From the NCBI RefSeq assembly GCF_000337095.1, contig NZ_AOIV01000025.1, positions 36,455 through 100,454 on the forward strand: a stretch of DNA of 64,000 nucleotides, written 5' to 3'. The translations under genes and the position numbers were made by a program. Shown in pieces: positions 33,322 through 34,753 of this stretch; within the stretch, counting starts at the first letter, position 1, and the number at the start of each line of letters is the position of its first letter. This DNA comes from Halogeometricum pallidum JCM 14848. GTDB taxonomy: Archaea > Halobacteriota > Halobacteria > Halobacteriales > Haloferacaceae. The notes beneath the pieces were generated by a model. It made no database searches. It saw only the letters and a program-made list of their open reading frames with translations, and was not told the DNA's origin.

Positions 33322-33663
33322 TCACTCACGACGGATCTCTGAGGAGAGCGTGATCGAATCGTTTTCCCGGTCGTACGCTACGAGGTCCGCGTCCCTCAGT
33401 TTCGGTAAGTGAAGGTGATACAGCACTACACGAACCTTCTCCACCTCCTCGGCCGAAATCCCGGACTGCGTCGCGTCCCGGTCCCGTTTCGCGACTTCGT
33501 TCGCCAACTCCGCGAGCGTCAGCGGCGTCCGCCCCTCCTCTAGGCATTGGAGGACGTGCCGACGTCGCCGGTGAGAGAGCGCTTCGAGTCGTTCGTCGAG
33601 GGCCGACGCGTCGACGGTATCGAAGAGCCGAGTGTCGGAGTGAATGCTCTGCGAGTTGGTCAT
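33322..33663 (-). CDS. DUF7344-type winged-helix protein
   Basis: 113 residues, one winged-helix domain: LDERLEALSHRRRRHVLQCL, then PLTLAELANEVAKR, then VRVVLYHLHLPKLRDADLVAYD and a short wing ending SSEIRRE. This matches the haloarchaeal DUF7344 HTH family. Probably a DNA-binding regulator; target unknown. It is about 75 nt upstream of the TrmB gene on the same strand. Confidence 0.88.
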   Translation of the reverse strand: MTNSQSIHSDTRLFDTVDASALDERLEALSHRRRRHVLQCLEEGRTPLTLAELANEVAKRDRDATQSGISAEEVEKVRVVLYHLHLPKLRDADLVAYDRENDSITLSSEIRRE

Positions 33664-33777
33664 AACGAGATATTGAGATAGCGGTACTTAGGGCGTCCGT
33701 GAGTTCTATCGAGGTACGTCCGCGGTTACTATCGCTGTGACAACGGACCCGGGGACCGGTCCATGGACGAGTCGAGT

Positions 33778-33814
33778 TTCTCCGTCGCGTACGTCGTTCG
33801 CTCGCGTCGCTCCT
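33778..33814. repeat. Flanking repeat, distal copy
   Basis: 37 bp matching 34024-34060 with two mismatches; the distal half of the tandem unit next to tRNA-His. Confidence 0.75.
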
Positions 33815-33861
33815 CTCGGGGCGCACGCTCGCGAGGGGGAAGCACTCGGAGAGACGGTTTT

Positions 33862-33878
33862 GGTGCGAGAATTGAACC
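33862..33878 (-). repeat. tRNA-His 3'-end copy, distal
   Basis: Seventeen bases identical to the T-arm and acceptor part of tRNA-His. It starts an inverted repeat with 33901-33911 (GGTTCAATCTC). Confidence 0.75.
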
Positions 33879-33955
33879 TCGCTACGCTCGGTTACTCGCT
33901 GGTTCAATCTCACAGTGCGGACGTTCGTCTGCTCACTTCGTTCGCAGACAGAAAG

Positions 33956-33978
33956 GTCCGGGTGCGAGAATTGAACCC
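33956..33978 (-). repeat. tRNA-His 3'-end copy, middle
   Basis: 23 consecutive bases identical to the last 23 bases of tRNA-His (34101-34123). Positions 33966-33977 pair perfectly with 34004-34015 (GGTTCAATTCTC), giving a 12-bp stem with a 26-nt loop. Confidence 0.85.
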
Positions 33979-34023
33979 CGGTCGCTTCTTCCAGTCGCTC
34001 CCCGGTTCAATTCTCTGTACGAC

Positions 34024-34060
34024 TTCTCCGTCGCGTATGTGGTTCGCTCGCGTCGCTCCT
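34024..34060. repeat. Flanking repeat, proximal copy
   Basis: 37 bp 3' of tRNA-His that match 33778-33814 with two mismatches. It is part of the roughly 100-bp duplicated unit that ends in the tRNA 3' end. Confidence 0.75.
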
Positions 34061-34100
34061 GTCGGAGCGCCTGCTCGCGAGAATAGCGCTCGGAGAGAAG

Positions 34101-34174
34101 GTCCGGGTGCGAGAATTGAACCCGCGTCTCAGCCTCCACAAGGCTGAAGGATAGTCCACTACCCTAACCCGGAC
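34101..34174 (-). tRNA. tRNA-His (GUG)
   Basis: Minus strand, 74 nt including an encoded G-1 paired with C73, the histidine identity element. The acceptor pairs TCCGGGT with ACCCGGA. The anticodon stem CAGCC/GGCTG encloses TTGTGGA with anticodon GTG. The T-arm is GCGGG-TTCAATT-CTCGC. No intron; CCA is not encoded. Its 3' end is duplicated downstream. Confidence 0.93.
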
Positions 34175-34297
34175 ACGCAGTTAGTGGTATCCTCGTGTGA
34201 CTAAAATACGTTACGACTCCAGGGAGGCGTGCGAGAGAGGTGCACGCCGCCGTCCACCGGGACGCTTTTGCCGCCGACAGGACTAGAACGGGCAACT

Positions 34298-34753
34298 GTG
34301 GCCATCACGGACAAGATATACCTCAAAAACCACCGCGAAATCGTCTCGCAACTGGACGTGAACATCCCGAAGGGGGCGTTCAAGGGGGCGACGATGGACG
34401 TGCTCTACTCGGGAGAGGGCCTCTCGAAGGTGGACGCGGCGACGCGCGACAGACTGCTCGACTTCGCGAAGGCCTTTCTGGACCCCGAGAACCCCGACGA
34501 CCTCTACACGGGCTACCCGGAACGGCAGTTCGTGACGTACATCCTCGAACTCCGCGCGCAGGGGCTCGGCCCCGACGCCATCGTCGACGTGATGGGCGAC
34601 GAATACATGCTGTACGCCTACCCCGGCGACGTGCTCTCCTTCCTCGACAACGCCGTGCGGACGCTCGAAGCCGTCGAGACGCTCTCGAACGTCGAGGGCG
34701 ACGACGAGATGGAACGGAAGGCACGCGACGCGAAGCGGGCGCTCAGCGGCTGA
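34298..34753 (+). CDS. Conserved haloarchaeal protein of unknown function
   Basis: 151 residues from GTG 34298 (VAITDKIYLKNHREIV); the longer frame upstream is Pro/Thr-rich and unlikely. Largely alpha-helical by appearance: QLDVNIPKGAFKGATMDVLY, LLDFAKAFLDPENPDDLYTG, QFVTYILELRAQGLGPDAIVD, DVLSFLDNAVRTLEAVETL. No cysteine, membrane segment or known catalytic motif. It looks like a conserved single-domain family; I do not know its function. Confidence 0.8.
   Translation: MAITDKIYLKNHREIVSQLDVNIPKGAFKGATMDVLYSGEGLSKVDAATRDRLLDFAKAFLDPENPDDLYTGYPERQFVTYILELRAQGLGPDAIVDVMGDEYMLYAYPGDVLSFLDNAVRTLEAVETLSNVEGDDEMERKARDAKRALSG

What the first reader, a model, noticed from the sequence alone, without database searches (positions are those of the whole stretch)
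33778..34174. tRNA-His 3' end repeated in tandem downstream of the gene
Seen directly: the terminal 23 bases of tRNA-His recur at 33956-33978, and 17 of them at 33862-33878. The flank is duplicated with them: 33778-33878 matches 34024-34122 over about 100 bp. Each displaced copy is followed by an inverted partner (12-bp perfect arms at 33966-33977/34004-34015; weaker at 33867-33878/33901-33911). tRNA 3' ends are standard integration targets, and tandem copies could be scars of successive integrations and losses. The inverted partners are not explained by simple att-site duplication and suggest a small non-autonomous palindromic element that captures gene 3' ends.
Basis: partly seen in the sequence, partly recalled or inferred. 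Interest (0 to 1): 0.75.

Follow-up and report, generated by a model that had tools for sequence, protein, structure and literature searches.

The report
tRNA 3'-end hairpin cassette arrays
In salt-loving archaea many tRNA genes, including the tRNA-His gene in this window, are followed by small units without evident genes that each end in a copy of that tRNA's own last 21 or so bases, and these units were likely inserted one after another into a fixed spot of the tRNA gene as tiny mobile cassettes.

Summary
Downstream of tRNA-His (34100-34173, minus strand) lie two displaced copies of its 3' end (33955-33977 exact; 33856-33878, 3 mismatches), two inverted partial copies and hairpins. It is not peculiar to tRNA-His: own-3'-end copies follow 15 of 44, 17 of 41 and 16 of 42 tRNA genes in three haloarchaeal genomes, against 13 of 5480 cross-tRNA matches. 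Units read D - H1 hairpin - inverted copy I - H2 hairpin - D'; the copied block runs from tRNA nucleotide 53 to 73. I-H2-D' is a covarying hairpin. Its model hits 105 of 117 haloarchaeal genomes; in a phylum sample all 51 genomes with hits are of that order. Hits lie on the sense strand downstream of tRNA genes. Two congeners differ by whole units, identity resuming at the T-loop, at 5 of 14 genes compared. I read the units as non-autonomous mobile cassettes that insert at the T-loop edge and restore the tRNA with the 3' end they carry, likely recognised as folded single strands. The recombinase is unidentified; transcription and movement are untested.

The parts
34100..34173 (-). tRNA-His (GTG) gene, the landing site
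   Evidence: ARAGORN; Rfam tRNA 34101-34173, 49.7 bits
34100..34122 (-). D: 3' end of the tRNA gene (T-loop edge to 3' end) that is copied downstream
   Evidence: block limits from 65 units
34023..34099 (-). unit 1, H1 hairpin (long type)
   Evidence: sequence
34004..34015 (-). unit 1, I: inverted copy of the T-loop part of D, perfect 12-bp complement of D and D'
   Evidence: inverted repeats I3/I4
33978..34003 (-). unit 1, H2 hairpin (type 2a, GGGGAGCGA..GCGACCGG)
33955..33977 (-). D'1: displaced exact copy of the tRNA-His 3' end, right boundary of unit 1 (145-bp period)
33918..33954 (-). unit 2, H1 hairpin (short type, TTTCTGTCTGC-GAACGAAGTGA-GCAGACGAA)
33901..33911 (-). unit 2, I: inverted T-loop copy, one base shorter
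33879..33900 (-). unit 2, H2 hairpin
33856..33878 (-). D'2: displaced copy with 3 mismatches of 23, all in the acceptor part (99-bp period)
33778..33855 (-). tail: second copy of the long H1 (90% identical to 34024-34081 over 58 nt), remnant of a former unit or of a tandem duplication
   Evidence: family D2

Best explanation
Downstream of tRNA-His lies an array of units without evident genes, each ending in a copy of the host tRNA's own nucleotides 53-73, and these units are likely non-autonomous mobile cassettes that inserted between G53 and T54 of the tRNA gene. Shown by sequence: the order D - H1 - I - H2 - D'; the sharp limits of the copied block; the sense-strand location beside tRNA genes; and whole-unit differences between congeners. 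Inferred: an incoming cassette begins with a copy of tRNA nucleotides 54-73, so that insertion restores the tRNA; the old 3' end is pushed downstream as D'; repeated insertion, together with unequal recombination between the D copies, builds the array. Inferred: recognition is by a fold of one strand. I (complementary to the T-loop half), an unpaired asymmetric spacer, hairpin H2 and then G^TTC in D' form a hairpin with the geometry of an integron attC site or of the right end of an IS200/IS605-type element, and the tRNA T-arm is the partner site. Predicted and untested: the enzyme acts in trans from elsewhere in the genome. A single-strand transposase (Y1 type) or a tyrosine recombinase would fit. 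Function for the host is not required; the units would behave like selfish elements that do no harm because they repair their target.
For: Own-3'-end copies (<=3 mismatches of 24, within 400 nt) follow 15/44, 17/41 and 16/42 non-tandem tRNA genes in G000, G046 and G056 (two of G000's 15 are neighbouring Arg-gcg genes in a stretch with assembly Ns), against 5/2138, 4/1684 and 4/1658 cross-tRNA matches. Copied block: tRNA position 51 identical in 29/65 units, 52 in 54/65, 53 in 65/65, 73 in 59/65, 74 in 21/36. I present: 58/78 units with <=2 mismatches of 12 against own D', 4.4% of 1870 cross comparisons. Covariation in 18 type-2b units: 93.7% of cells paired, 11 pairs with changes on both sides, 35 such cells against 10.2 in shuffles and 2-6 in slid controls; five of those pairs lie in H2, outside tRNA-derived sequence. 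Sense strand folds better than antisense in 69 of 78 units with RNA and 63 of 78 with DNA parameters, by more than the shuffle mean in 65 of 78. Hits in 105/117 haloarchaeal genomes; in a phylum sample 51/294 hit, all 51 in the same order. Location: 30 of 30 returned loci; of 57 places in four genomes 54 directly downstream of a tRNA gene on the same strand, the other three in one displaced tRNA-Tyr array; 17 of the 57 and 3 of the 30 are training units. Whole-unit differences between G000 and G002 at Ala-cgc, Ser-cga, Leu-caa, Leu-taa and Phe, identity resuming at the T-loop. First D' is the better copy in 10 of 20 arrays, equal in 9, worse in 1.
Against: No enzyme was identified, and no excised form, new insertion or transcript was seen. 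Insertion and deletion were not polarised with an outgroup, so the G000/G002 differences could all be losses by D-D' recombination; 9 of the 14 genes compared gave no clean test (flanks diverged, units shared, or arrays too complex), and Leu-caa and Leu-taa also align in other registers because units resemble each other. The period is only about 90-200 bp, short for a circular intermediate. The G-U excess in the I/D' helix (37 against 11 A-C on 54 distinct pairs) sits at nucleotides 52-54; elsewhere it is 8 against 11, so it gives no support for an RNA rather than a DNA fold. I is not clearly closer to the upstream D than to D' (9, 6 and 9 ties). One covariation measure, further pair types, was reached by 26 of 500 shuffles. 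12 of 117 haloarchaeal genomes had no hit. Integron integrase above cut-off: 0 of 117 genomes.
Confidence: 0.6

Rival explanations
1. Scars of ordinary integrative elements: each displaced 3' end is a leftover attR of a provirus or plasmid whose body was deleted.
For: tRNA genes, the T stem-loop and 3' end included, are standard archaeal attachment sites (PMC8371274, passages). Elements with recombinase genes do sit at tRNA-His of G004 and tRNA-Tyr of G056.
Against: The spacers are not random remnants: they carry recurring H1/I/H2 modules at different tRNAs and in genomes of different families. The G004/G003 element has a 47-50 nt repeat and no such modules in the stretches read beside its ends. 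Up to 35 model hits per genome, and none in the sampled genomes outside the order.
Confidence: 0.12
2. A host RNA device: the tRNA trailer is transcribed and the hairpins steer termination, 3' processing or tRNA folding; the copies of the tRNA end pair with I for that purpose.
For: Sense strand, downstream of tRNA genes; sense strand folds better; the T-loop half of D' matches where the acceptor half of some distal copies has decayed, though the search favoured that half.
Against: More than half of the tRNA genes examined lack a clear unit and orthologous genes in two congeners differ. At least 65 of 78 kept units still match the tRNA over the whole block, including the acceptor half that is mostly not paired with I. 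No general G-U bias.
Confidence: 0.14
3. Pure recombination or slippage: short repeats of the tRNA end arise once and are multiplied or lost by unequal recombination, with palindromes made by template switching.
For: Tandem duplications such as A-B-A-B in L028 and near-identical neighbouring units in L005; repeat-mediated deletion over short direct repeats is described for Haloquadratum (PMC3119063, passages).
Against: It does not explain the same H2 families at unrelated tRNA genes across families, the fixed start at nucleotide 53, or recurrence at dozens of tRNA genes.
Confidence: 0.1
4. Homing by an HNH endonuclease that cuts tRNA genes and copies elements in by repair.
For: An HNH gene sits between tRNA-His and a displaced 3' end in G053, and 30 of the 30 returned relatives lie next to tRNA-His.
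Against: No such gene at E<=1e-10 in G000 or G002, which have arrays. The relatives whose surroundings I saw lie beside tRNA-His or one intron-containing tRNA, apart from L300 where no tRNA was found, whereas arrays follow many isoacceptors.
Confidence: 0.04

Closest known systems
Integron gene-cassette arrays (attI, attC, IntI)
   Same: Tandem units in one orientation beside a fixed landing site; better-preserved copy usually next to it; folded site of two complementary boxes (I and D') around an unpaired spacer and a hairpin, with GTT at the box edge (attC layout recalled; archaeal integrons in PMC9668308, passages).
   Different: The landing site is a tRNA gene, a different one for each array. 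The boxes are tRNA-specific 12-mers. The short units carry no evident gene. No integron integrase above cut-off in 117 genomes.
PATEs / IS200-IS605-type elements of haloarchaea (PMC3119063, passages)
   Same: Short, no transposase gene, palindromes near both ends (H1, H2), fixed target side, one orientation; the guide-hairpin-cleavage-site order at the right end is like I-H2-G^TTC (IS608 layout recalled).
   Different: Target is the T-loop edge of tRNA genes, the unit carries the tRNA 3' end, and the guide-like box is about 12 nt. Similarity of H1/H2 to known PATE or IS605 ends was not tested.
att sites of tRNA-targeting tyrosine integrases
   Same: Displaced 3' end of the tRNA, restored gene; the T stem-loop is a known att location (PMC8371274, passages).
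   Different: No integrase or evident gene in the units; the same hairpin modules at many tRNAs; period of about 90-200 bp.
SMR-A small mobile repeats of Haloquadratum (PMC3119063, passages)
   Same: About 110 bp, non-coding, strong target preference, mobilisation unknown.
   Different: They have inverted terminal repeats and target PATEs and IS605-type elements, not tRNA genes.

Membership tests
Integron | intI gene | tested here: not met
   TIGR02249 above cut-off in 0 of 117 haloarchaeal genomes; weak matches in 75 of 117, as in all 14 control genomes
Integron | attC-like folded site with complementary boxes, unpaired spacer and hairpin | tested here: inconclusive
   geometry and covariation present; GTT at the box edge, but the rest of the R box consensus (recalled) is not met
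Integron | tandem same-orientation cassettes beside one insertion site | tested here: met
Integron | genes in the cassettes | tested here: not met
   unit lengths and sequences leave no room for ordinary genes; ORFs over the window's array are mechanical
PATE / IS200-IS605 | near-terminal palindromes, no transposase gene | tested here: met
   H1 and H2 by inspection
PATE / IS200-IS605 | ends similar to those of an IS605-type transposon | not tested
PATE / IS200-IS605 | dispersed insertion beside a 4-6 nt target | tested here: not met
   all 57 strong places in four genomes are tied to tRNA genes; the model contains the tRNA-like arms
Integrase att scar | repeat matches the att of an integrated element in the same gene | tested here: not met
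   G004/G003 element: 47-50 nt repeat, no H1/I/H2 in the stretches read beside its ends
Known Rfam RNA family | match above gathering score | tested here: not met
   only tRNA reaches its gathering score in window 33500-34500 and in 14 loci

The most novel reading that the evidence does not exclude
Haloarchaea host a cassette system of their own, unrelated by enzyme to integrons: the T-arm of almost any tRNA gene serves as the landing site, each cassette carries the tRNA 3' end that makes its insertion harmless and a 12-nt guide-like box that makes it specific for that tRNA, and a recombinase acting on folded single strands adds new cassettes next to the gene.
Probability: 0.3. Interest if true: 0.93.

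Novelty: new variant of a known kind. Interest (0 to 1): 0.8.

Why it matters
It would be an overlooked, order-wide class of tRNA-anchored mobile DNA, present beside a third or more of the tRNA genes examined in three genomes. It would supply another natural example of structure-guided, array-building recombination besides integrons, and a simple solution to the problem of inserting into an essential gene without breaking it. It also warns annotators that haloarchaeal tRNA trailers hold pseudo-copies of tRNA ends, which can confuse att-site and tRNA-fragment searches. The recombinase question is directly testable in laboratory haloarchaea.

Tried and rejected
Integron membership by IntI: 0 of 117 above cut-off. 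Rfam: nothing but tRNA above gathering score; a HgcC match in L016 is below its cut-off. RNA-specific selection by G-U against A-C counts first looked positive (44 to 11 over 65 units), but on 54 distinct pairs the excess is confined to nucleotides 52-54, so I do not use it. H1 and H2 stems by a crude stem finder gave no G-U excess (H1 6 to 10, H2 5 to 20). Two apparent exceptions to tRNA proximity (L242, L255) were offset errors of my script at contig ends; both hairpins are in the first 150 nt downstream of a tRNA. Four viral contigs hold the core pattern; none has a tRNA gene, one match spans the model but with arms unlike a tRNA T-loop and three are partial. No hit in the phage collection, one in the plasmid collection. 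HNH gene as general mobiliser: absent from G000 and G002 at E<=1e-10. No protein structure was predicted.

Rows dropped: of 104 candidate units (its printout was cut, later scripts used the full saved list), 78 were kept. Removed: units with N, spacers under 50 or over 200 nt, more than 1 mismatch in the T part, repeats of the same spacer, tandem tRNA genes. One search used 65 of the 78 (at most 3 mismatches), so identity inside the block is partly selected; its left edge and the base after 73 are not. A1 holds 18 units: 16 of 17 typed 2b (Ser-cga of G056 left out) plus His of L015 and Val-tac of G056. R1 finds these by construction: 17 of the 57 places and 3 of the 30 loci. Genome-scale model searches used stricter filters that lose weak matches. 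One search counted only genes with at least 200 nt of downstream sequence and set tandem tRNA genes apart. G000/G002 were compared in detail at 14 tRNA genes chosen. Second-clade HNH loci (15) were chosen by hand from the list.

Literature: searches in the open-access library listed no paper that I could recognise as describing this feature; passages only were seen of PMC3119063, PMC5217627, PMC9668308 and PMC8371274, listings only of the rest. attC and IS608 layouts are recalled.

Full report
Observation. The minus-strand tRNA-His gene (34100-34173) is followed by two displaced copies of its 3' end at 33955-33977 (exact) and 33856-33878 (3 mismatches of 23), two inverted copies of the T-loop part (34004-34015, 33901-33911), and a duplicated flank (85 of 101 columns identical). 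Read in the direction of the tRNA, the order is D - H1 - I - H2 - D' - H1 - I - H2 - D'' - H1.

It recurs at tRNA-His. A search of 60 genomes (own included) with the gene gave matches in 59, some of them other tRNAs. I oriented 44 tRNA-His loci. 17 of 44 carry at least one further copy of their own 3' end within 450 nt downstream, 0 of 44 upstream, and 0 of 44 with the reversed query. In 11 of the 13 arrayed loci printed the first copy has the A/G variant of its own gene (not in L008 and L016).

It is not about histidine. In this genome, and in two genomes of other families, a third or more of the non-tandem tRNA genes examined have a copy of their own 3' end downstream: 15/44, 17/41 and 16/42, against 13 of 5480 cross-tRNA comparisons. 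The copied block starts at tRNA nucleotide 53: identity is 29/65 at position 51, 54/65 at 52, 65/65 at 53, 59/65 at 73 and 21/36 at 74. The interior of the block is partly selected by the filter used; the left edge and the base after it are not.

Anatomy of a unit. After D comes a hairpin H1 that often pairs the T-run after the tRNA with an A-run, and often holds the motif stem-GA-RC-loop-GY-GA-stem. Then I, the complement of about 12 nt of the T-loop half: 58 of 78 units have it with at most 2 mismatches to their own D', against 4.4% of cross comparisons. Then hairpin H2, of which a few families recur at different tRNAs and in different genomes, then D'. For family 2b the alignment of 18 units fits a helix I/D', an asymmetric unpaired spacer, and an H2 helix with recurrent mismatches and an unpaired A. 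Of its 24 pairs, 11 have changes on both sides; five of these lie in H2, outside tRNA-derived sequence. The covariation score is 0.286 against 0.140 in shuffles and at most 0.085 in slid controls; the weakest measure, further pair types, was reached by 26 of 500 shuffles. The sense strand folds better than the antisense strand in 69 of 78 units with RNA and 63 of 78 with DNA parameters, by more than the shuffle mean in 65 of 78. Whether the folded strand is RNA or DNA is open: the G-U excess in I/D' is confined to nucleotides 52-54.

Distribution. A covariance model of family 2b hits 105 of 117 haloarchaeal genomes (94 of 97 good ones), with up to 35 hits in one genome. In a phylum sample 51 of 294 genomes hit, and all 51 are of the window's own order. 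The 30 loci returned, the best match of each of 30 genomes and three of them training units, all lie downstream of a tRNA gene on the same strand (28 by script, two at contig ends by reading). In four genomes with listed tRNA genes, 57 places reach E<=1e-3, 17 of them training units. 52 are within 600 nt downstream of a listed tRNA gene, where about 0.4% would be expected by chance. Two more follow tRNA genes that the family scan had missed. The last three form one array 4.7 kb downstream of tRNA-Tyr, beyond an element with a phage-integrase gene. A core pattern without the tRNA-like arms gives 24 hits in the four genomes and none for the reversed control. By coordinates 20 are downstream of tRNA genes and one is in the tRNA-Tyr array; the remaining three, in G000, have no tRNA gene nearby and share another repeat context beside genes that resemble RPA-like proteins by eye.

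Dynamics. Two congeners, G000 and G002, differ at many tRNA genes. I compared 14 in detail. At Ala-cgc and Ser-cga G000 has a unit that G002 lacks, and G002's sequence from the T-loop on matches G000's from D' on (83% over 78 nt, 81% over 57 nt). At Leu-caa (G000) and at Leu-taa and Phe (G002) the best-matching unit of the other genome lies one unit further out, so the extra unit is next to the tRNA; Leu-caa and Leu-taa also align in other registers. The other nine gave no clean test. In 20 arrays with at least two copies, the first D' matches the tRNA better than the last in 10, equally in 9, worse in 1. Tandem duplications such as A-B-A-B also occur, so recombination between D copies is likely active too. 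Truncated tRNA copies of Tyr and Pro carry hairpins inserted at the T-loop edge, to within a base or two of G53/T54. Large integrative elements enter the same gene independently: in G004 a 38-kb element with a resolvase-domain gene is bounded by a 47-nt repeat, shows no such modules in the stretches read beside its ends, and separates an array from tRNA-His.

Interpretation. The simplest account is a family of non-autonomous cassettes that insert at the T-loop edge of tRNA genes, bring their own copy of the 3' end, and displace the old one. The landing site, the complementary box I, the spacer, the hairpin and the GTT edge resemble an integron attC site; the two near-terminal hairpins and the guide-like box resemble IS200/IS605 elements and PATEs. 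Neither membership is shown: integron integrase is not found above cut-off, and ends of IS605-type elements were not compared. Insertion, strand choice and enzyme are inferred. The main rivals are a host RNA device, recombination alone, and ordinary att scars.

A second tRNA-linked element surfaced. An HNH endonuclease family (hits in 245 of 392 haloarchaeal genomes at E<=1e-10) lies next to tRNA-His in 30 of the 30 loci returned. In G053 it sits between tRNA-His and a displaced 3' end. A second clade lies just upstream of an intron-containing tRNA in the 15 loci that I chose to fetch. It is absent from G000 and G002 at that threshold and so is not the general mobiliser.

Noticed in passing
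L301-L330, L090:6829-7278, L343-L345: An HNH endonuclease family with zinc-finger-like cysteine repeats sits next to tRNA-His in 30 of the 30 loci returned (28 downstream on the same strand, 2 convergent); displaced tRNA-His 3' ends follow it in G053 (1 mismatch of 22) and, less exactly (4 of 22), in L314 and L318.
   Followed up: partly
L331-L342, L346-L348: A second clade of the same HNH family lies within about 200 nt upstream of an intron-containing tRNA in all 15 loci that I chose to fetch (labelled Gln-ttg by ARAGORN in 12 of 15; Rfam tRNA above cut-off in 11 of 15); it may be tied to that gene or its intron.
   Followed up: partly
G004:C1:390667-429164 (L085-L087), G003:C5/C6 (L088, L089): A 38-kb element at tRNA-His with resolvase-domain, DNA-methylase and DUF499 genes, 47-nt repeat; a relative appears in G003, split over two contigs.
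   Followed up: partly
L260 (G056:C1:2229000-2235500): A stretch of about 4.7 kb with a phage-integrase gene separates tRNA-Tyr from its hairpin array, which contains truncated tRNA-Tyr copies split at the T-loop edge.
   Followed up: partly
L273 (Haloarcula halophila plasmid NZ_CP119561.1, 237657-242706): 22 tRNA genes by ARAGORN upstream of a TROVE-domain protein gene; one stretch that reads like a tRNA-Cys gene by eye has a type-2b hairpin inserted at its T-loop edge.
   Followed up: no
G000:C35:33525, C36:90955, C41:33526 (L280, L283, L286): A shared motif GTGGCTGCGCGCGCAGCGA..GCACGGAGCGG near genes that resemble OB-fold/RPA-like proteins by eye; contains the 2b core without its arms.
   Followed up: no
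L016 759-862: Weak match to HgcC RNA (28.4 bits, gathering 50) near a tRNA-His locus.
   Followed up: no
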